64,000 nucleotides of DNA from Cadophora sp. MPI-SDFR-AT-0126 (taxonomy: Eukaryota; Ascomycota; Leotiomycetes; Helotiales; Ploettnerulaceae), in the NCBI GenBank assembly GCA_020747065.1, contig JAGMVK010000004.1:930001-994000 (forward strand). The letters run 5' to 3'. A program made the position numbers and the translations under genes. Positions 31,433 to 63,218 of the stretch are shown piece after piece. Under the pieces are notes generated by a model. That model was not told the DNA's origin. It worked only from the letters and a program-made list of their open reading frames with translations, and ran no database searches. Positions within the stretch are counted from its first letter, which is position 1; the number at the start of each line of letters is the position of its first letter.

Positions 31433-31464
<32 letters not shown>

Positions 31465-43432: not shown

Positions 43433-44216
43433 TTAGTCTCCCGTCAAAAACCTCTCCATAGTATTGTCTCGCATGATAGACATGTCAATCCTAATCGCTG
43501 GGACAGACACCCTTGCATTTGGATCTGCCCCACTTTCAAGCAGTATCCTAACGGAAGCGTCCTCCCCATTGTCCACTGCAGCAAACAGTGGGGTGTGTCC
43601 CTGATCATTCTTTGCATCAATCTCTGCTCCAGCTTCGATTAACGCAACGATGGTGCTCGTATGTCCATGAGCCGCTGCCAGATGAAGAGGAGTCTGGCCT
43701 GTATCATCTCTCGCCGCAATGTCAACTTCGGAGTCTGATAGGATGCGAACAATAGTATGATAGCCCTTCTGAGCAGCGATGTGCATCACCGTGGATCCCG
43801 GAACGGGACGTGATGGAGAATGATTCTGTTTGAAAGTCAATGAAGTGAAGCACAAAATTTCGCAAAGTGATATCCTACCACAGCACTCTCGGGTGGCGAA
43901 AGTTGGCCAGTCTCAGCTTGCATAGCACAGGATGTATTCAGCGCTATCCAATCTATGAACATCAGTCAAGGATTGGACGTCATCAACTTAAGTTGTTGAC
44001 TTTTAACCAACCAAAATCTAATATTGGGGAGGAGACTCCTTCCTGGACATTGGAAGGCTTGTCAACTTCATTCCCACAGCTGAATGCGAAGTTGTCAGTT
44101 ACAATCATCGAATCTCTTCTGTTTTCCAATTGTCGTTCTGCCATTTTCAGCTTCCGCTTAATATTCTCCCTGTATCTGCGTTGAGCTTCTCGATTTTGCA
44201 GTTTCCGGCGCTCCAT
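43433..44216 (-). CDS. bZIP-like basic region plus ankyrin repeats
   Basis: Three exons (44216-43988, 43952-43879, 43825-43433) join to 231 aa with consistent phases, though the first donor (GTTGAT) is non-consensus. The N-terminus RRKLQNREAQRRYRENIKRKL matches the fungal AP-1-type basic region (N..AQR.YR), followed by a short charged helix. The C-terminal half has three ankyrin units with TPLHLAAAHGH and TPLFAAVDNG signatures. Ascomycetes commonly carry such bZIP-ANK proteins as transcriptional regulators. It lies about 1.5 kb from the RiPP precursor gene and could regulate the neighbouring cluster; no evidence beyond proximity. Confidence 0.7.
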
Positions 44217-45703: not shown

Positions 45704-46299
45704 CTAGCAGTAATTCCCAAGTGCTTGATCGGCCTGTGCGTTGTTCCTGGCAGAAGCCACGCAGTAATTGCCAATGAGTTGGTCAGCAGACATTTCACGC
45801 TTGTCATTATGACCAGCAAAGCGCTCGTTGTAGCTTCCCAGAGCCTGGTCGTCAGCCGCTTCAGATCGCTTCTCGGTGGAATCAGAGAGTCTCTGGTTTT
45901 CGCAGTAGTTTCCCAAGGCGTGGTCACTAGTCCCTTCAGAACGCTTGACAACAGAGTTGGTCTGTCGTTTTTGCTCGTAGTAGTTTCCAAGTGCCACATC
46001 TCCAACTGATTCCTCTCTCTTTTCAATTGGAGAGCTCGCGATGCGCGGACGGTAACTCCCAATGGCTGCGGCCTCATGATGCTCAGCACGCTGTCCAACA
46101 CGCGAGGCGGCTCTTTGCTCGTAGTAGTTTCCCAGTGCTGTGTCTTCCATGGACTCAGCACGTTTGGCAATCACGAGGCTGGGGTCTTTTAAGCAAGTTA
46201 GAGACAATTTGATCACGTTTTTCTTCTGGGATAGTTACCAGCAACTGGAAGGGCAACAGTTGAGCCAATGATGGCTGCGAGGAGCAGTTGGTAACGCAT
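45704..46299 (-). CDS. RiPP precursor (dikaritin/ustiloxin-type, Kex2-processed repeat peptide)
   Basis: Two exons (46299-46239 and 46185-45704, 53-nt intron with GTAACT donor and CTAAC branch site) give 180 aa. Residues 1-20 form a signal peptide. The rest is seven imperfect repeats of roughly 18-25 residues, each ending in a small acidic leader, then (A/L)-(L/I)-G-(N/S)-Y. The core tyrosines fall at residues 41, 65, 89, 114, 139, 161 and 179. Lys-Arg sites at 28-29, 76-77, 93-94, 101-102, 126-127 and 149-150 suit Kex2. This architecture matches fungal precursors such as UstA and PhomA, with a different core. The product may be toxic but nothing here shows it. A mating pheromone is considered and rejected. 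Confidence 0.88.
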
Positions 46300-46728
46300 T
46301 CTGAACGAGGTGTTGCTAAATTTCGAGTGATGAGATAGCTTGTTGATCGAGATGTTTTGGGGGTGATGAAGGGAGCAGCTGGCGATTGATATAGCAGCAC
46401 CCAGCGAGACAATTCCTAGGCTTCTGGTAGAATACAGAATTCTAAAACAACCCGTTGGGTATGATTGGCGTTTGCTTTGTAAAGCTTATGCCGATTGTCA
46501 TAATCATAGCATTACCGATGCGTTGTCTCTACTCATCTGCTCACTCCAGACATAATCAGGTATCACAACTTTGCGCGGTGCCACAAGAACCCACAACACT
46601 AACTAACCTAACTTTGAGGCTACTGCTCTGTCAGCTCCAAACGCTCTTCAGTATTGACTTGCATGTCCTATCACAAAGTCTCTCTGATTCTCAGACTTTC
46701 GATTTCTGTTTCTGCCGCCTTCAAACAA
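46300..46728. promoter_or_regulatory. Bidirectional promoter between RiPP precursor and UstYa-like gene 1
   Basis: This 429-bp region separates two divergently starting cluster genes. A weak TATATC-type element on the minus strand near 46390 lies about 90 bp before the precursor ATG. Shared control of precursor and modifying enzyme is likely by position; no factor site was assigned. Confidence 0.5.
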
Positions 46729-47855
46729 ATGATGGTGCCTACCTACAGTGAATCAACATCCAGCCGGATATCTGATGGAGAAGACCTTGGGGACGAAGAG
46801 AAACTCCTCACCAGCTTCGCATGCTCTACGGTACGGCAATCGAAGTCGAATTCACTCAAATGTTGGTGGAGCTTGCTGTTTGGGAAACGTCAAAGTCGAG
46901 ATAATCCTCCAGAAAGGAGGACATGGCAAACCGGACTGCATTCCTCTGCGTTTCATATTCCACTCATCCTTACTTACTCCCTCGTCTGGCTTCTTGTCAT
47001 CCACCAGTCGCTACAATCAAAAAGGTGCATTCCCTTGGTCTACAGTATGTCAATTTCCAGTATATAATTATCGTCACAGACGCTCAGCATGATTTTCATA
47101 GCTCCAGCCCAAGATGCTATTTCGCCCGAAGCCAAGATCTTGAGTGTAAAAATCAACCAGACTTCCAGCATTTTCAACGCAGAGCCATCGCCAGAAGTGG
47201 ATGATGCTTGGGCGTCACTTTTCCAATGTAGGTTGAGCATTCGATGACACTTCGAAATGCCCAGTCTTGACTGGATTTTAGATGCCAATATTCGAATCAC
47301 GAAGCAAGAGGTTCAACAACTTGGAAGATCATCTGTCGCGTTGAGTGATGGGTCAGGAGACTACTTTGGGACACTTGGTGAGTACAATACAAATATGCGG
47401 GAGGTAACAAACTTTGACATTTATTTAGATGTTTATCATCAGCTCCATTGCTTGGTGAGTGTCGTCAATGCCTGCATGACTAGTTCTTAATGTCCAACTT
47501 CAAGAAATATATTCGGCAATATGTTCATCAAGACTACTACACTGTTAAAGACACGAACGTCCCTGTGAAAGACCATGTTAGTACGTGTTTCAATTCTCGC
47601 TGACCACATGGAAGATGTCTAACAGCTCCAGACCATTGCATCGAGATGCTCCGCCAAGTCATCATGTGTAAAGCCGACACAGCGCTCATGACATATGAAT
47701 GGCTTCCAGATTTCCCCGGTCCATGGCCGAATTTTGGAATCCAGCACGAGTGCGTTAATTGGGAGAAGATTGATAATTGGTCGAAAGAACGGTCGATCGA
47801 TATCTTTGATCCGAAATACTTGCATCATCCTAAAATTGGTAAAGCTTGTCTCTGA
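46729..47855 (+). CDS. UstYa-family (DUF3328) oxidase 1
   Basis: Six exons (46729-47044, 47102-47227, 47282-47377, 47429-47454, 47505-47580, 47626-47855) give 289 aa, all phases consistent; exon 4 is only 26 nt. A single transmembrane helix (about residues 75-93) follows a hydrophilic cytosolic N-terminus. The two family copper/metal motifs are present: HQLHC at about 183-187 and DHCIEMLRQ at about 216-224. UstYa proteins in ustiloxin and asperipin synthesis oxidatively cross-link tyrosine side chains of the precursor. It lies divergently beside the precursor gene. The PSPEVDxAW and NIRI segments are also standard in this family. Confidence 0.88.
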
Positions 47856-48551
47856 ATCCTGGCGAACGGAGAGACGTGTAGCTGACTGTTTGTCCCAGGA
47901 TTTTCGTATGCCCGTCATGATGAAACTCCAACAAATCATGGTGATTGATAGGGAACGAAATCGTTATTCACAATCAATTGAATGTCACTGAGCTTCTCGT
48001 AGATAGATATAGGTGAACTCAATGCGATGCTCTCTCAAGAGTCTTTCTTTCATCGTCACTGGCAACCTGTGTAATGGTCTCGTTTTCTGTTGTTGATATT
48101 TCTGGGTTGAGCCCTGTAAACGCGCGATTGGCAGGGCAAGTTACGAAGTTAGGACGAGGAGCCTACAAAACGAACACTGGCATCTGTATTTAGCGAGCCC
48201 ACACAGCAGTGGACTCTGTAGACGGGGTATGAAAATACAACGCGAGACAGAGGAATGGAATCGTCTTGCTTCCACATCATTCAATCGAGGCAAAATCTCA
48301 TCGTTACTGACCACGCCTGGAATTGATTTGATCCAGCTCAGATCGGAGGTGTCGCTCGATGACATGGAACTGGCCATCAAGTGAGACCTTGACATACGAT
48401 GCTTCGGAAGAAACCAGAATGAGCATTGAGAAGCGGAGATTTGGAAATTTATTGCTATTTGTATACCTCACAGATGCACGGGTCAAGGTCGTTACTTCAG
48501 GATTGACATTTGGCTATGTCGGGACATTTTGTTGCCACAAGTACGTGTCAT
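47856..48551. other. Intergenic within the RiPP cluster
   Basis: It lies between the convergent 3' ends of the first two oxidase genes. No gene is recognised. Confidence 0.45.
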
Positions 48552-49295
48552 TCAATGGCCATGGCCATGTACACTATCTTCGCTGGTCTTCGATCTCGAA
48601 TGCGTACTTGACTGACGAGACGCCAGAGACTTCTCATACAATGATGAGGGATCTCTACACTGATGCGGTACCATACCATTCGTCGTCGGTAAACCTCCCA
48701 CTGAATCCGCGGTCGAGGGCTCGAGGGAGCCGTCCGCGAAGCACAAAAAGACCTGTAGGAATGTCAGCATCCTAAATTAATTCACTATAGAAGTGACGTA
48801 AAATTGAGTACACTGTACCTGTCGAAAATAATCCATACAATGCAACGTATGCCCCAAGTCAAGATGATGCCCGTGAACCACACCCCTCTTCGTGCCTCTA
48901 CTATTCATCGCATCCAGCTTCGAATACTGCTCCTGGATATGATTTCTGATTATTTGCAAGCAATGCAGCTGATGGAACATTCCCACTCCGTAGACTTGTG
49001 AATCCTCCCCCAAATTCTCTAGAATGAATCCTCCATTTGGTGTCACAAGTTGATTCCACAGGCCGTCCGTTGCGGGGTCCAAGCTCTGGTAGGTGGAATT
49101 CGCTTCGAAAGGGGTTGTGACTGTGTTTTCAGAAGGACTAGAGATTGAGTGGCAGATCTCGGTTATGCTGGTGTGGATTTGTTGGCGAAAAAGGGCGAGG
49201 AGGAGGCCGGAAATCGCGCTGGTGATAAGGAGGATGAAGAGTGCTTGGTGAGTAGCATTTTTGGGCGTGTACCAGGGATTCTTTGCGAATGGCAT
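48552..49295 (-). CDS. UstYa-family (DUF3328) oxidase 2
   Basis: Two exons (49295-48819 and 48752-48552) give 225 aa. A longer upstream frame begins only with TTG, so the ATG at 49295 is used. A transmembrane helix lies near residues 17-36. HQLHC (108-112) and the LHCMDYFRQ motif (151-159) are present, then a spliced LCFADGSLE segment that usually follows. A His-rich insert (HGHHLDLGHTLHC) precedes the second motif and the tail ends HGHGH. Its role is probably the same class of oxidative tailoring as its two neighbours, likely on a different bond or residue. Confidence 0.82.
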
Positions 49296-50055
49296 ATTCT
49301 CTGTAGCAATATCTTGACTGATTGTTGACCGTGGCAAAAGAAAACCAAGAAGATACCGAAGAACGACAAGAATCGATTTCGGGAGACGGGAATGAAAATG
49401 CAGGCTGGGCTCACTTCAATCACTTGATACATGTTCCGAAGATCGCGATCAACGCAAAGTGAGCAATCGAATAATGATGCATGATGAGAAGACTCTTGTC
49501 AGTCAATTGCATCCAATTTACCAAGACCTTACTCGCCCGAATCACAATATGCGCGAGTCTCAGCTCATCGCTTAGCAATTTTAGGAGAGCATCAACATCA
49601 ACAAATACACTTCACTTCACATCAGTAATCACCCGAAGGGCACTGGCATTGCATTCAGACGATTAGCAAAACATCGAATTTATCATCGCTGATTCGCTGC
49701 TGTAGGGTGATCAGTAGGTAGTGGGGGAGATAAGCATCATGGGTCGGGCCGGGGAAGCTGTCCCAATGCGGCAGGTGACCGAATCGAGGAGGTCCTTAGC
49801 CAAGAATGGGGACTGATGCAACTACCGACTTCCCTGCACAACATAATGCTTATATTCTCATCTATCTCTCCAATTATTTTAATGCTGATACGTGTGAGCA
49901 TTGCGTGATTACTAAATACTCATCTCATGTATCTCATGATCCAGATGCAGTATTAACACCTGGACAGGTTGTAACGGAGTACAGACGATGTGGGAAAAGG
50001 AACAACGAATTGTGCAACGACACATCGCGGGAATTTTGGTTGCAGAGGTGCAAAT
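49296..50055. other. Divergent promoter region, oxidases 2 and 3
   Basis: Transcription starts in both directions from here. No further gene is recognised. Confidence 0.4.
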
Positions 50056-51082
50056 ATGACCACGCGATATTCACCGATTGGTGTGGGGGAGGCATCTCAT
50101 GATGGTCATGGAGAGGAAATGTTCTCAGATGTTGAGACCTCCACGGCAATCGATGAGAAATATTCACAGCCCTCGAAACCTCGAGAAAGGAAACACGTAC
50201 GACCTCTTACGATTACAGTCGGTGGCTTATCCATTTTGCTCCTCATTGCACTCGTGGCCTCCACAGTATTAATGGAAAGATCGAGCAAATGGAAAAGTCC
50301 AGTCCCTGACAGTCAGTTCTATCCTATTCTGACTATTGACGTTATGTACTGACAATCCGGCTGCAGTTCCTAGGGAGAGCATACTGTTTGGAAATTATTC
50401 CGATTACAGTGCTGCGCCAACTATTGAAAACAATGTGATGTGGATGGATTTGCTGGGTCGTATGTAACATCATCCAAATCTTGACTTAATCCAGTCAATC
50501 ACAATTTCTGGCGATTGCTGATGCATTCTCAAACAGCCGGGATGGGATTCGTATCCATCAAAAACCCATCTCAATACGGACTGCCGAATGGTGTCTCAAA
50601 CCCTCACATGCCACCCACCGTACAAAACTACGGCGTGAGCATGTACCACCAACTCCACTGCCTGGTAAACCACCCCCTTTTCCTCCCCACCTCACCTTCC
50701 AGCTCCCTCCCTCTATCGAATCCAACACTAATCCGAGACCCCATTCACAGATGATGATCCGCACTCTCTACTGGCAAGCCCTCCGCGGCGACCGCAACCT
50801 CAAGATGGTCGAGAATGACGGCCTCGAAGAGGAAATGGGACATGTGAACCACTGTTTCGATTATATCCGTCAGGGCATCATGTGTGCGGGCGACATGTCG
50901 ATTGAGGCGGCTGCAGATGAGGGGAATGGGGAAGGCCCGCATATTAGTGGGATCGGAATGAGGCATGATTGTAAGAGTTGGGTATGTATGAATCCTAGTC
51001 TGAGGCTGTGGTGCTAGGTGATGCTGATTGTGCATAGGAGGCATCGAGGACGTGGATGGATGAGAATCTGCCGGCGAGGTGA
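50056..51082 (+). CDS. UstYa-family (DUF3328) oxidase 3
   Basis: Five exons (50056-50311, 50367-50459, 50537-50664, 50751-50981, 51038-51082) give 250 aa with matched phases. A Pro/Glu-rich cytosolic N-terminus is followed by a transmembrane helix (50-72). YHQLHC lies at about 153-158 and NHCFDYIRQ at about 192-200, spaced as in the family. The end ESRTW/ASRTWMDENLP-like motif is reached through the last intron. It completes a set of three divergent paralogues in one cluster. Well-studied dikaritin clusters usually have one to several such enzymes. Confidence 0.85.
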
Positions 51083-51282
51083 AGAACGGTCCGTGGGTGT
51101 TCCTTTAAAAGGAGAGATTGATAGGCGATAGCTCGCATCCACCCCCAAAAAGCAACAATTTGTAACGTGTAGCCGTTAGAGCATGCAAGAGGCGCTCAAT
51201 AAGTTACAAATACAAACTCGCCTTCGATATGTCCAAAAATTCTTGCGAATAACAGGCATATCTTGCGTTCACTCCTACCTGA

Positions 51283-52789
51283 TCAAACATAAATATAACA
51301 AAACTCACCACCCAAGCCACCCATTGTATCCAGCAAACTCCCCAACTTCACAGCCGGTGCTACAATACCTAAGTCGACATCATCATTCAAAGTCGTATTC
51401 CGGGATGGCGGCTCATTGAAGAGCGTAATAGTTCCAGACACAGCTTTCAAACGAGCCGACAAATTCTGCGTTTGCCATATCCACCAGACGCGATCGATCA
51501 TCCCGTGATGTAGAAAGAATGCTGGGTCGTTTGGTGAGGTGAAGAAGTCCTAAGAGGGAAACATGTCAGATATTGGTGACGGGCTTTGGGAGCTGCTGTA
51601 GACTTACCCCGCCAGGATCGCCTCCGATGGTGTAATGACCGCCCGTGTGAACACCCCATTTGCCTTCTGGGAATTGACCTTGCATGACTGTTTGGAACCA
51701 GTAGATATCAGAGTGCAGAGGATCGGTGATGAGTGCGTAGGTGTAATTAGTTGCTGTCACGGCTGCTGCGTGGGGATTGATGTCTCGTCGGAGACAGCGT
51801 GGGTTGTACCCCAAGCCATCTTGTTGAGGATTTGGTGGGACGCCTGATATGGATGGGAATATGGGACCAAGGTTTACGCTCATGCTAGGATCGTTAGCGA
51901 TGAACTCGTCTACGTTGCAGATTTTGGAGATCTCACTTCTTGAATGGACCAGTGGTAACACATCCACCCCCAACTCCAGGTGGAATCACATCAAACGGTG
52001 GTGGGGCTCCAGTAATGAGAACACCGGTATGATTGTAATAGAGACCGTTGCCTGACAAGCTTGTGTCGCTTCCATCGAACAACGGAGAGTTGATGGGATC
52101 GCTAGTTTCGATCAGCATTCGGAAGTCGCCTGAAAATTTGGGATTTGAAAACTGACCTGGAGTAGCGGCCCCAATTCCAGTAAGGTTGATAGCCTTTGTA
52201 GCCACACTCATCACGAAGAGCGGTCTCATATGCCCAGACAAAGTATCTATGCCAGGAGAGAAAATTGCCCTGGATGTGTCAATTGAGGTCAGTGGAGCAC
52301 AGATGATGGTCGTACCGTAGCGTGGATTGTGAACGTTTGATTGATGTGTACTAGTACAAAGTCGTCATATCTAATGAATGGGAAGTTAACATAAGCAAGA
52401 GATGTATGAAGGGATAAGTTGGATTTAGGCCGATATCACTTGCCTCGACCGTGCGCCTGGTGCAACAGAGCGGGGTGCCTTTGATGGCTTAGACTGAAGA
52501 CAGAGGACAGCAGAGATGTATTTTTTCTTGTCACTTGAGGATATATCACCCCTGAAGTCAATTAGTACAGTGGGAATTCGTACGAAGCTGAAAGAACTCA
52601 CCATTCTTTTCGCTTGGCAGCATTCTTGACACTACACCCGCTGTGTCTTTTGGCCTGGTACTTCTCTAGATTGATGAGTCCTTTGGCAGCGAGTTTATCG
52701 ACTTCGTCCGGGACCTGGAAAGACTGTGGGGTTGCAGTTGCAAGATTGAAAAAGATGAACAACGCCGTAAGGAAATGACGAAACTGCAT
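51283..52789 (-). CDS. Secreted tyrosinase (UstQ-like, binuclear copper)
   Basis: About seven exons are read, starting at the ATG 52789. A signal peptide (about residues 1-20) is present. The CuA side is built across splices: LVHINQTFTIHATG, then FLSWHRYFVWAYE and QPYWNWGRYSS. The CuB side has GGHYTIGGDPGGDFFTSPNDPAFFLHHGMIDRVWW. The second intron uses a GC donor (GCAAGT near 52450). The rest are GT-AG, including one of 57 nt that joins WNWGRYS to DPINSPLFDG. Tyrosinases hydroxylate or oxidise phenols. In ustiloxin synthesis the tyrosinase UstQ acts with UstYa/UstYb on the Tyr of the peptide core, and the same partnership is likely here. A TATATA box lies at 52885-52890, about 96 bp upstream. 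Confidence 0.87.
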
Positions 52790-53249: not shown

Positions 53250-53732
53250 CTACAGAGCAGCCACACAAAGAGCTTCGAGTGGGGATGGATGGCCAGAGAG
53301 CAATGCCACCTGGTCCACCAAGAGATGAAGTATCGAGGGACAAATAGGATCTTCAGCGTCGGGTTCCAAAGCCCCTTCTAGCCACGCCGCATCAGTGCAT
53401 ATTTCACAGCCAAGTGTAATGTGGAAAGCATAGTAACCGGCATGAACACGCACTTCCCACGAGGCAATGTGACATTGAAAAGTTGTGCTGTACAGGAAGC
53501 TATTGAAGGGGCTTGAAATCTTCGATGTGGGACGGAGAATCTTCCCGGTCCGGACAATAGGAATAGATTGTGGCGTCCAGTCGACATATATAGATCGTGA
53601 TATGATTGGAGTGATGGAACACCAGGGGGCTTTTTCATGGGATTCTGCAGTACAAGAGTGGCGGGGGAGGATGATTTTGTTCTGAAATTCTGGTAGCGAA
53701 CATGAGTAATCGATGACTTGGCACTTTGACAT
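53250..53732 (-). CDS. Possible ORF of 160 aa, unrecognised
   Basis: A true ATG begins a cysteine-rich frame without a signal peptide or known motif. It lies just upstream of the tyrosinase on the same strand. It could be an uncharacterised cluster member or chance. Confidence 0.22.
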   Translation of the reverse strand: MSKCQVIDYSCSLPEFQNKIILPRHSCTAESHEKAPWCSITPIISRSIYVDWTPQSIPIVRTGKILRPTSKISSPFNSFLYSTTFQCHIASWEVRVHAGYYAFHITLGCEICTDAAWLEGALEPDAEDPICPSILHLLVDQVALLSGHPSPLEALCVAAL

Positions 53733-60220: not shown

Positions 60221-61276
60221 TCAGATATTTGTCGGAAATTGGATATCCATTTCCTTCATCTCCCGATTGAGTGTCCGCTGTTCGTGCAGCAAATTCCGTA
60301 TATCATGTCTCACCCTGTGATATCTGGCTTGCCGTGTCACAACTTCCAGATACTCTTCATCTTCCTGCGAGTTCTCGTCGTCATCGGGCCCGACCACAGC
60401 GAGTGCTCTCAGCGCCGGCACACAGCAATTGTCCTCATCTGCCGGCTTTTTCAGCTTGACAGTCTGCGTATCATGAGGAAACTCCTCCTTGATCTCCTTA
60501 TACTTGATGTGTGTCAGGATGAAATCGACAGCCTTAGCTCTGACCGTACCCAAAGTGACTTCTTTCAGCCTCGTCTCGACATATGGTGAGAATTCGGGTA
60601 TAGGACCTGGATCGTGCGGATTCTTGATGACGATTGTGAGGTCTCCTTGTTCGCTCAGTCCGAATCCACCCATCCACGTCCAGTCGCAGAATGTTGTTGC
60701 TTTTAGCCAGCACCACCAGTCCACTGCGAAATGATTTATGTCCTTCGCACATTCCCGCCACAGTTTCTCAATTTTCTTTGTGTCTTCTTCCTCAATGTTG
60801 GGTATATCCTCTGGGATACCGACAAAGCTGCTCAGGATCCAAAAGTCAGTAGGGACGCCGTCTGCGAAGTAGAATGTATCGTGCTCTTTGCTGACATAGA
60901 TGAATGTGCCATCGTCGTGGTAGGTAAGCGGTTCCGCGCAACGCCATAGATTCCAATGGCACTTGGCCTCTAATCTTGAGTCACGGCAGACGTGTAGGAG
61001 GGAGGGGACTCGGTATCGTTTCTGGGCGAGGATCCGCAGCTCCAGTGGTTTCGAGAGCAACTTTACCTCGTCCAGAGGATCTTTTGCGATTCGCTGTATG
61101 CGCGCATTATTTCGAGCCTCTTCTTTACACGTGTAGTTCCATATCTGATGCTTGATTTCGTTGGGGAGGGCTTTGAAGGAGTGGAAGGTCGTCGCTGGTT
61201 CCATGGTGAGGGATGTCCAAGGACTTGACGGACGTATTTCGAGAGCAGGTCGGTGCTTTTGGATGTCACCGTTCAT
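60221..61276 (-). CDS. 2EXR domain protein 1
   Basis: One exon, 351 aa. The domain opens F.SFKALPNEIKHQIWNYTC, continues with R.LAQKRYRVPSLLHVCRDSRLEA and holds the two Glu/Arg-type repeats of the 2EXR fold. The family is very expanded in ascomycetes and its function is unknown. A charged C-terminal helix follows. It heads a run of three similar genes on the same strand. Confidence 0.85.
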   Translation of the reverse strand: MNGDIQKHRPALEIRPSSPWTSLTMEPATTFHSFKALPNEIKHQIWNYTCKEEARNNARIQRIAKDPLDEVKLLSKPLELRILAQKRYRVPSLLHVCRDSRLEAKCHWNLWRCAEPLTYHDDGTFIYVSKEHDTFYFADGVPTDFWILSSFVGIPEDIPNIEEEDTKKIEKLWRECAKDINHFAVDWWCWLKATTFCDWTWMGGFGLSEQGDLTIVIKNPHDPGPIPEFSPYVETRLKEVTLGTVRAKAVDFILTHIKYKEIKEEFPHDTQTVKLKKPADEDNCCVPALRALAVVGPDDDENSQEDEEYLEVVTRQARYHRVRHDIRNLLHEQRTLNREMKEMDIQFPTNI

Positions 61277-61842
61277 GTCAATGATAAGGTTCCAGTCTCG
61301 GATATTGTGAGGAAGTAGCGATTCAGAAAATATGGCGCAAGTTCAGGTGATTTATGCTGATATTTGTTGCAAATCAACTTTGGGCTCGCGGCGCTGGAGA
61401 GGCTGGCGCTGGCCGTGGGGGATGGCTTTCGGGAGCGCTAGGTCGAGAACGGATAAGCCGCGGTTGGAGGGGTCGTGTGGGGGAGTGTAAACAAAGTATC
61501 AAGTGCCTATGATCAACAACGGTCAGATATCAGCTCACTTATCCAAAAATAGCTGGCAGACTTACTGTGTTCTTTTCTTCATCGACTATCTCGAAGTGGT
61601 TTCAGGTCATTCTCTAGGTTGAAGGGAATCTCCATGTCAATAAAATTTCCTTTTCTGCCGGGTTGGGTAGCCATCAAGCGTTGGCTCATTCATTGTCATG
61701 TACAATATCTTTGAGTCACCTGAGTTTACTGCGAACAGCCTGCAAGTCATCTTTCGAGAAGAAGCTGATCGGCATCAAGCCGTAATCTTGCTTCTTGCAC
61801 TACAGTGAATTTTTCCCACTAGCCACCCACGTGTAGAGGCAG
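61277..61842. other. Intergenic
   Basis: No gene, RNA or repeat is recognised between the first two 2EXR genes. Confidence 0.4.
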
Positions 61843-62760
61843 CTAATCAGGAAGAGAAACCCTAACAATACTCCTCCACTTCTTGCGATCACTCTGAGCT
61901 TTCGCAATGGCCACATCATCCGAAGAGTACATCTCTCGTCCTTCCGTATCCCTCCATGTATCCCAGTAATCCTGAAGCGCAAGTCCACAGGACTTAACAT
62001 ATTCGCTGTGAATATCAGGCTGTTCTTCCTCCCATCCATGGTCCGGACTTCCAAGAACCAGATGTATCAGCTCCAGATTCGGCGCATTCAGGAACATTTT
62101 CATGACGGCGGGAAATCCCATGTCGATATATGTCAGCGCATCTAAGTCGTACAAATCCGATGCATAGACGGAGACAAATCGCAGAGGTATCAACCTATCT
62201 TTCCCGAACTCAATCATCGCTCTACAGGTATCCGTACTCATAGACAGCGTATCGAGCTTAGGATTGAATCGTACGCCCTTATATGGCCTTGCCCATCGAA
62301 GTCCGACATCCTGCCAGGGGCTTTGATAATCGGCCAGAGATGCTTCAGGATTATCTTCCTCCAGTCTGTCGAATCCAAAGTGCACTTTATATAACCCATT
62401 CAGTGTATTGTATGATTCGTAGCTTGCGCCAAGGACGCTGAGGGATATCGTGTCGGGCTTTGGTTGGGGTCGTGTGGGATCGAAGCAGATTTCCCGCTCC
62501 CACAGAGCCATCTTGCGCTCCAGGGAGACATGTGGAAACTCTACGACTCTGCGAGGCAGAGATTCTTCCCATATTCGACGGCGTAGCTCTATTGGTAGTA
62601 AAGGGAACTTGGGGAACGTGTTGGTAATGGGTGTTGGTGAGGACATTGTTGGTGGTTCGTCGATTTTGATGAACTGCGGGGTGAAGCTCCAGTTCATTTT
62701 CGTGGAAACTTTTGGCGTCGCCCACTTGCGGCCGCCTCGGTTGCCTTTGTTTACATTCAT
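61843..62760 (-). CDS. 2EXR domain protein 2
   Basis: One exon, about 305 aa from the ATG at 62760; the frame continues upstream but only from a GTG. The core FPKFPLLPIELRRRIWEESLP is the 2EXR signature, followed by a central segment with LDTLSMSTDTCRAM and a C-terminal PNLELIHLV part. It is a paralogue of the flanking genes, with an unknown role. Confidence 0.82.
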   Translation of the reverse strand: MNVNKGNRGGRKWATPKVSTKMNWSFTPQFIKIDEPPTMSSPTPITNTFPKFPLLPIELRRRIWEESLPRRVVEFPHVSLERKMALWEREICFDPTRPQPKPDTISLSVLGASYESYNTLNGLYKVHFGFDRLEEDNPEASLADYQSPWQDVGLRWARPYKGVRFNPKLDTLSMSTDTCRAMIEFGKDRLIPLRFVSVYASDLYDLDALTYIDMGFPAVMKMFLNAPNLELIHLVLGSPDHGWEEEQPDIHSEYVKSCGLALQDYWDTWRDTEGREMYSSDDVAIAKAQSDRKKWRSIVRVSLPD

Positions 62761-63218
62761 ACTGGTGAATTTGCCCAAGTCTGCGATTGTGCGATCAGTA
62801 GAAAGCACCGTACGTCGAAGGACCACCAGAAAGAAGAGCACGAAAGTTTTATACGTTGTATGTATGTAGTATAATCGCCTGAGAAGTCATTCGCCTGACA
62901 CTCTTCCGCAGTTATTTGCTTGGCGAAACACCGGGTACGAAAACACGTCCCGATCACTTGTGCCCTTACAAATGCCTCACTCCATGTATTTGGCCTTGAG
63001 TGATGCTCTTGCCTTGAGATCCTCTTGGATACATCCTTGCCCTATCTCTGATCGATCCACCAGCTTCAAGGATACACTCTGTAGTCCACAGAACCAATAC
63101 CATACATCATCAATCGAGGCTTTGGCATGACATACTCAGGAGCAAATTGAGCTGCCCATGAATCCAAGCGCGGTTGTAGAACGAGTTGTGCTAGACGTCG
63201 AAATCGTGTGTACTGGCC
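62761..63218. other. Intergenic
   Basis: No gene recognised. Confidence 0.4.

What the first reader, a model, noticed from the sequence alone, without database searches (positions are those of the whole stretch)
45704..52789. An apparently undescribed RiPP cluster of the dikaritin type
A secreted repeat precursor, three UstYa-family oxidases (HQLHC + HC..(L/F/I)RQ motifs) and a secreted UstQ-like tyrosinase sit within 7 kb, bounded by ordinary genes (bZIP-ankyrin left, kinesin right). This is the minimal kit by which ustiloxin, phomopsin and asperipin are made: Kex2 release of short cores, then oxidative cross-linking at tyrosine. The core here, (A/L)(L/I)G(N/S)Y, is not one of those I know. 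Presence of the genes is seen; the product is inferred.
Basis: partly seen in the sequence, partly recalled or inferred. Interest (0 to 1): 0.93.

Follow-up and report, generated by a model that had tools for sequence, protein, structure and literature searches.

The report
Fungal RiPP peptide gene cluster
A root-associated fungus carries a compact, apparently intact set of five genes that looks built to make small cross-linked peptides from a gene-encoded repeat protein, with a core sequence unlike those in the papers we read; it is a new example of a known kind of pathway.

Summary
Confirmed. Window 45,704-52,789 of a Cadophora genome (Helotiales) holds five apparently intact, intron-containing genes: a 180-aa precursor, three UstYa-family oxidases and a short tyrosinase, four of them paired on two divergent promoters. 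My spliced tyrosinase and third-oxidase models equal annotated proteins exactly. The precursor found no relative in a search of 5.8 billion proteins, yet is hardly a chance frame: seven (A/L)(L/I)G(N/S)Y cores, each 7 (once 6) residues after an arginine; every Tyr and Cys after residue 20 at core position 5 or directly after it; core DNA varying mostly at third codon positions. Orthologues of the oxidases (and, in three other species, the tyrosinase) are neighbours or share contigs in other Helotiales. UstY enzymes are published as dicopper peptide cross-linkers, so an oxidised Tyr peptide is the likeliest product. Product, expression and precursor conservation are untested. New member of a known kind.

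The parts
45704..46299 (-). Precursor gene, 180 aa, two exons (46239-46299 and 45704-46185, 53-nt intron): hydrophobic signal-like N-terminus, then seven (A/L)(L/I)G(N/S)Y cores
   Evidence: no relative at E <= 1 in the protein search; one locus in its own genome, matched exon by exon
46300..46728 (.). 429-bp divergent promoter region shared by the precursor and oxidase 1
   Evidence: from the gene models; no convincing shared motif found
46729..47948 (+). UstYa-family oxidase 1 (Y1), 300 aa, 7 exons, one hydrophobic helix, HQLHC / HCIEMLRQ / HEC
   Evidence: the annotated version P0127 is spliced differently (288 aa); orthologues such as P0129 align to the model from residue 2
48552..49295 (-). 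UstYa-family oxidase 2 (Y2), 225 aa, 2 exons, one hydrophobic helix, HQLHC / HCMDYFRQ / HQC
   Evidence: 79% identical to Cadophora sp. DSE1049 P0135 over 225 residues
49296..50055 (.). 760-bp divergent promoter region shared by oxidases 2 and 3
   Evidence: from the gene models
50056..51082 (+). UstYa-family oxidase 3 (Y3), 250 aa, 5 exons, one hydrophobic helix, HQLHC / HCFDYIRQ / HDC
   Evidence: identical to annotated P0121; in the predicted model 13 of 17 ten-residue blocks after residue 80 have mean pLDDT above 85
51283..52789 (-). Short tyrosinase (Q) with a signal-like start, 390 aa, 7 exons, copper-site histidines aligned with solved catechol oxidase
   Evidence: annotated P0001 is 100% identical over 390 aa
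43433..44216 (-). Ankyrin-repeat gene with a bZIP-like basic N-terminus; possible regulator, membership of the cluster uncertain
   Evidence: ankyrin by Pfam; basic region by eye only, no Pfam match; intron structure not resolved

Best explanation
This is a five-gene RiPP cluster of the dikaritin kind. The precursor enters the secretory pathway and is cut after KR (five cores) and probably at single arginines (QR, AR, two cores). That yields pieces with a 6-7 residue, mostly acidic leader, the core (A/L)(L/I)G(N/S)Y and a short follower. UstYa-family membrane oxidases with HxxHC/HC copper-type sites facing the lumen, with the tyrosinase, then oxidise the core tyrosine and close a side-chain cross-link, most simply from the Tyr phenol to the Leu/Ile three residues before it; trimming frees the core. 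Shown here: the genes, their integrity, the repeat architecture and the association of the enzymes in other Helotiales. Inferred: cleavage, topology, the cross-link, its partner residue, the order of steps and secretion.
For: Intact gene models; Y3 and Q equal annotated proteins. Pfam domains. Regular Arg-x7-core units, 1 of 200,000 shuffles. All 9 Tyr and 3 Cys after residue 20 lie at core position 5 or the next residue; for the five not fixed by the core pattern P = 9e-8, pattern chosen post hoc. Core codons differ at 19%, 15% and 50% of first, second and third positions. Neighbouring tags: Y1-Y2-Y3 consecutive in Cadophora sp. DSE1049 (590632-4), Y1-Y3 consecutive in C. gregata, Y1/Y3 two apart in C. 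malorum and M221, Y1-Y2 consecutive in Rhynchosporium graminicola and Diplocarpon mali, Y2-Q consecutive in Oculimacula yallundae; equal contig lengths in Rhexocercosporidium (Q, Y1, Y3) and Leptodontidium sp. 2 (Q, Y1). Published: UstQ with UstYa and UstYb gives the first cyclic ustiloxin intermediate (PMC6514808; PMC12048977); UstY enzymes use a dicopper site to cross-link peptides (PMC12186524).
Against: The precursor found no relative (191 candidates, none at E <= 1), and its conservation beside the enzymes could not be checked because no fungal genome but this one was open to search. Two cores lack a KR site. No S41 peptidase was found in the genome (4 candidates scored; introns limit that search) and no Methyltransf_25 match among the 50 of 90 candidates scored fell in the window. 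UstYa-family enzymes also serve non-RiPP pathways (PMC12048977). The tyrosinase is shown adjacent to an oxidase in only one other species; in two more it shares a contig of 0.37 and 2.9 Mb. No shared promoter motif. No expression or mass data.
Confidence: 0.83

Rival explanations
1. The precursor is a secreted protein processed to linear signalling peptides, and the oxidases and tyrosinase next to it serve another substrate.
For: Most repeat precursors in fungi (6,120 of 7,878) have no UstYa-family neighbour, and some are known to act as linear peptides (PMC7329392). The precursor is not shown to be conserved with the enzymes.
Against: 429-bp divergent promoter region with Y1. All Tyr and Cys after residue 20 sit in or directly after the cores, as expected for oxidase substrates. 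Precursors annotated as mating factors or pheromones lack such neighbours with three exceptions (PMC7329392, abstract).
Confidence: 0.09
2. The tyrosinase is an unrelated secreted catechol oxidase that happens to sit at the cluster edge; the RiPP pathway is precursor plus three UstY enzymes only, as in asperipin-2a where one UstY enzyme suffices. (This rival concerns one part and overlaps with the best explanation.)
For: Nearest solved relatives are catechol oxidases, 365 bits. The family is broad: 1,950 hits. Tyrosinases did not significantly accumulate near repeat precursors overall (PMC7329392).
Against: Next tag to Y2 in Oculimacula, same contig as oxidases in Rhexocercosporidium and Leptodontidium sp. 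2. Tyrosinase within 10 kb of 4 of 26 UstYa loci against 0.22 expected. In the 2020 survey tyrosinases did peak two genes away when UstYa-family genes were present.
Confidence: 0.2
3. The precursor frame is a chance or decaying open frame.
For: Seemingly not annotated; repeats degenerate; 0 of 160 positions pass a filter modelled on the published one.
Against: Seven cores against a shuffle maximum of 1, regular units, third-position variation, a 53-nt intron that joins a signal-like exon in frame.
Confidence: 0.03

Closest known systems
Ustiloxin and phomopsin pathways (dikaritins)
   Same: Signal peptide plus repeated cores with KR sites, UstYa-family oxidases and a tyrosinase (PMC6514808 passages; PMC10512285 passages)
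   Different: Known cores are of YXIX type with N-terminal Tyr (PMC7329392 discussion; PMC9233826 passages); here no Y.I. string occurs after residue 20 and Tyr is at the C-terminal end of the core. No Methyltransf_25 or S41 match in the window (limited searches).
Epichloecyclins (gigA) and victorin
   Same: Multi-core precursors (imperfect repeats in GigA); an aliphatic residue before the aromatic one that it is joined to (PMC9233826 passages; PMC7317419 passages)
   Different: Core sequences not compared here; the gigA cluster has one DUF3328 gene and a kexin gene, while here there are three UstYa-family genes and a tyrosinase.
Asperipin-2a
   Same: Small cluster, UstY enzyme cross-linking at Tyr (PMC6514808); the cross-link is cited as made by a dicopper enzyme (PMC12186524)
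   Different: One UstY enzyme, a transporter and a reductase, with no tyrosinase listed.
Lichen clan R1 clusters (PMC12048977)
   Same: Two UstY homologues with a tyrosinase nearby, product unknown
   Different: No precursor repeats were found there; methyltransferases present.
Putative RiPP cluster on chromosome 3 of Sclerotinia sclerotiorum (PMC6941272)
   Same: Paired DUF3328 genes in another member of Helotiales (order recalled), eight genes co-expressed during infection (passages)
   Different: Not compared gene by gene; no precursor is given in the passages seen.

Membership tests
Dikaritin (KEP precursor plus UstYa-family enzyme) | UstYa-family (PF11807) protein with HxxHC and HC motifs beside the precursor | tested here: met
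   Three genes, 64.7-188 bits; motifs
Dikaritin (KEP precursor plus UstYa-family enzyme) | ER signal peptide on the precursor | tested here: inconclusive
   Hydrophobic stretch at residues 3-20 by hydropathy; no signal-peptide predictor at hand
Dikaritin (KEP precursor plus UstYa-family enzyme) | Several cores released at Kex2 sites | tested here: inconclusive
   7 cores; KR directly before the leader of 5, QR and AR for 2
Dikaritin (KEP precursor plus UstYa-family enzyme) | Cyclised product | not testable with these tools
   No chemistry available
Kex2-processed repeat protein as computed in PMC7329392 | Three or more repeats of at least 8 aa passing a 0.6 identity score | tested here: inconclusive
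   0 of 160 positions pass in my approximation of the published filter, 80 of 83 for the C5 precursor as control; the authors' own code was not run
Ustiloxin/phomopsin type | YXIX core | tested here: not met
   No Y.I. after residue 20
Ustiloxin/phomopsin type | Tyrosinase in the cluster | tested here: met
   200 bits; next tag to Y2 in Oculimacula, same contig as oxidases in two more species
Ustiloxin/phomopsin type | S41 peptidase and SAM methyltransferase in the cluster | tested here: inconclusive
   None matched in the window, but the searches ignore introns and scored 4 candidates and the best 50 of 90
Ustiloxin/phomopsin type | Tyrosinase orthologous to UstQ or PhomQ | not tested
   Neither sequence was fetched

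The most novel reading that the evidence does not exclude
The core is a hexapeptide ALGNY(Y/C): the residue after the core Tyr is Tyr or Cys in 5 of 7 copies, and all three Cys of the precursor lie there. The tyrosinase would oxidise the core Tyr so that a gene-encoded Cys or Tyr next to it, or on a second peptide, couples to the ring, while a UstY enzyme ties the Tyr back to Leu/Ile three residues earlier. That would be a reverse-polarity dikaritin family of Helotiales with a built-in sulfur donor, hidden from repeat-based surveys because its repeats are degenerate.
Probability: 0.15. Interest if true: 0.75.

Novelty: new member of a known kind. Interest (0 to 1): 0.52.

Why it matters
Few dikaritin products are known (five by a 2022 review, PMC10512285) against 1,758 UstYa-linked repeat precursors counted (PMC7329392). 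Here an enzyme cassette shared by root-associated and plant-pathogenic Helotiales (lifestyles recalled) comes with a precise precursor prediction and predicted masses. It also suggests that precursors with degenerate repeats, missed by annotation, can be recognised by arginine-to-core spacing and by Tyr/Cys confined to the core, which bears on clusters where no precursor has been found (PMC12048977).

Tried and rejected
A pathway regulator of the bZIP-ankyrin type was considered for the left neighbour. The ten-base tox-box pattern (recalled from memory) is not enriched: 55 matches with up to 1 mismatch in the window, 58.4 expected. No 9-mer is shared by the three cluster promoter regions; one 8-mer is, and of 1,662 candidate 10-mers one (nominal P 0.0007) recurs in all three with one mismatch allowed, which is chance level.

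Precursors at the other UstYa-tyrosinase loci: a scan of ORFs of 60-400 aa with four or more KR in 22 sources (6 such ORFs) ranked the C5 precursor and the window precursor far above the other four (z 10.5 and 6.5 against 1.2 or less); nothing convincing at C7 and C12. The scan only sees single open frames.

Pfam was run on 20 of the 37 ORFs of 150 aa or more, plus shorter frames and the five gene models; no further tailoring gene was recognised next to the cluster. ORF 53,250-53,732 (160 aa) has no match. The other 17 ORFs were not scanned as such.

The search of the precursor against the protein collection gave 191 candidates, none with E <= 1. Own Y2 is not among the best 120, so I infer it is unannotated or outside the length limits.
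Full report
What was checked. The window is C33:930,001-994,000 of a 54-Mb fungal assembly. My spliced tyrosinase is 100% identical over 390 aa to BKA64DRAFT_337575 of Cadophora sp. MPI-SDFR-AT-0126, and the contig lengths agree (3,254,938); the taxonomy gives Helotiales, Ploettnerulaceae. The five gene models are open from start to stop across introns with GT-AG borders, one of them GC-AG in the tyrosinase. Oxidase 3 is letter for letter the annotated protein. Oxidase 1 is annotated with other splice sites; orthologues such as Cadophora sp. DSE1049 P0129 (78% over 302 columns) follow my model. The precursor and oxidase 2 seem to be missing from the annotation (inference).

Precursor. Residues 3-20 form a hydrophobic, signal-like start. 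Seven cores follow: ALGNY four times, and AIGSY, ALGSY and LIGNY once each. Each begins 7 residues (once 6) after an arginine: KR for cores 1, 3, 4, 5, 6; QR for core 2; AR for core 7. Shuffling all non-core residues gives a spacing shared by six or more cores once in 200,000. Six of the seven leaders hold two or more Glu or Asp and one holds a single Asp (sequences). Beyond the seven core Tyr, the remaining two Tyr and all three Cys stand directly after a core. These patterns were noticed first and tested afterwards, so the figures describe how regular they are rather than a pre-set test. Differences between core copies are concentrated at third codon positions, 50% against 19% and 15%, and Tandem Repeats Finder lists no repeat there: the copies look old and held at protein level. 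KR cuts alone would leave two pieces with two cores each and one with none, so Kex2 release of short cores is only partly right.

Enzymes. All three oxidases have one hydrophobic helix and the HxxHC and HC motifs. HxxHC and HC-x4-R are present in 120 of 120 listed relatives, and the stricter ordered form ending in RQ in 104. In a 74-sequence alignment the invariant and nearly invariant columns include these His and Cys, the Arg-Gln after them and a late H-x-C, besides other residues. A 2025 paper states that UstY enzymes use a dicopper site for oxidations such as peptide cross-linking (PMC12186524, passages read). The tyrosinase aligns from residue 47 to its end with a solved catechol oxidase (4j3p, 365 bits), with the copper-motif histidines in place.

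Conservation. From the two protein searches (best 120 of 1,950 and best 120 of 1,122 shown) and local assignment, the enzymes stand together elsewhere. Cadophora sp. DSE1049 has Y1, Y2 and Y3 under consecutive tags. C. gregata has Y1 and Y3 consecutive (its two clusters list different longest contigs). C. malorum and Cadophora sp. M221 have Y1 and Y3 two tags apart. Rhynchosporium graminicola and Diplocarpon mali have Y1 and Y2 consecutive. Oculimacula yallundae has Y2 and the tyrosinase consecutive. Rhexocercosporidium has tyrosinase, Y1 and Y3 on contigs of equal length (2.9 Mb); Leptodontidium sp. 2 has tyrosinase and Y1 likewise (0.37 Mb). Five contig lengths are shared between the two lists of 120: these three, the window's own, and one of Phlyctema vagabunda (copies at 56% and 51%). 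Y3 was seen only in Cadophora, Leptodontidium and Rhexocercosporidium at 68% or more, so it may be a later addition; capped lists cannot show absence elsewhere. Against: a precursor could not be looked for in any of these species, since no fungal genome but this one was open to search.

Genome context. UstYa matches (46) fall at 26 loci and tyrosinase matches (43) in 23 groups; four UstYa loci have a tyrosinase within 10 kb, 0.22 expected (counts are lower bounds, one UstYa match is below its cut-off, and the null treats the genome as one line). One of the other three, on C5, carries a textbook precursor with near-identical units. So this strain seems to have at least two such clusters, and the window's is the degenerate one.

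Comparison with what is known. In PMC7329392 (abstract and sections 6, 7, 9 and 11 read) 7,878 repeat precursors were found, 1,758 next to UstYa-family genes, 65.6% of the repeats of the latter containing Tyr, and tyrosinases peaked two genes away when UstYa-family genes were present. The ustiloxin/phomopsin type is YXIX there; this precursor has no Y.I. after residue 20. PMC9233826 (passages) describes epichloecyclins with N-terminal Ile joined to an internal Tyr, and victorin with C-terminal Phe joined to an internal Leu: the order aliphatic then aromatic, as here. In my approximation of the published repeat filter the precursor scores 0 of 160 positions, the C5 one 80 of 83. Paper searches naming UstYa, DUF3328, dikaritin, RiPP, Helotiales, Cadophora, Rhynchosporium, Oculimacula or Diplocarpon showed nothing on this cluster in the listings seen; supplementary tables could not be read and two key papers are not held, so a listing there is not excluded.

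Judgement. The pathway reading is about 0.83 likely; that the tyrosinase takes part, about 0.8. It is a new member of a known kind whose best features are a precise testable prediction and a precursor type that repeat filters may miss.

Noticed in passing
L022:356-604 (+), i.e. C5:1,076,256-1,076,504 of the same genome: A second, regular repeat precursor with units (S/N)PVQTIEDYVGGVDVDK(K)R beside a UstYa match (C5:1,077,344) and tyrosinase matches (C5:1,070,942-1,074,635). The frame has a stop in its first unit, which an intron might skip; not resolved.
   Followed up: partly
C20:135,734-144,359 of the same genome (L025, L026): UstYa-family matches at many places within 9 kb (at least five genes by eye), with no tyrosinase match within 10 kb and no KR-repeat precursor found.
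   Followed up: partly
C7 about 0.999-1.008 Mb and C12 about 0.970-0.974 Mb: Two more loci where UstYa-family and tyrosinase matches lie within 10 kb; no repeat precursor found with my scans.
   Followed up: partly
window 43,433-44,216 (-): Ankyrin-repeat gene with a bZIP-like basic start next to the precursor; proteins of this build regulate some fungal metabolite clusters (recalled; ToxE papers only seen in a listing).
   Followed up: partly
window 31,434-31,464: A run of 31 G.
   Followed up: no
window 60,221-62,841 (-): Two neighbouring 2EXR-family genes.
   Followed up: no
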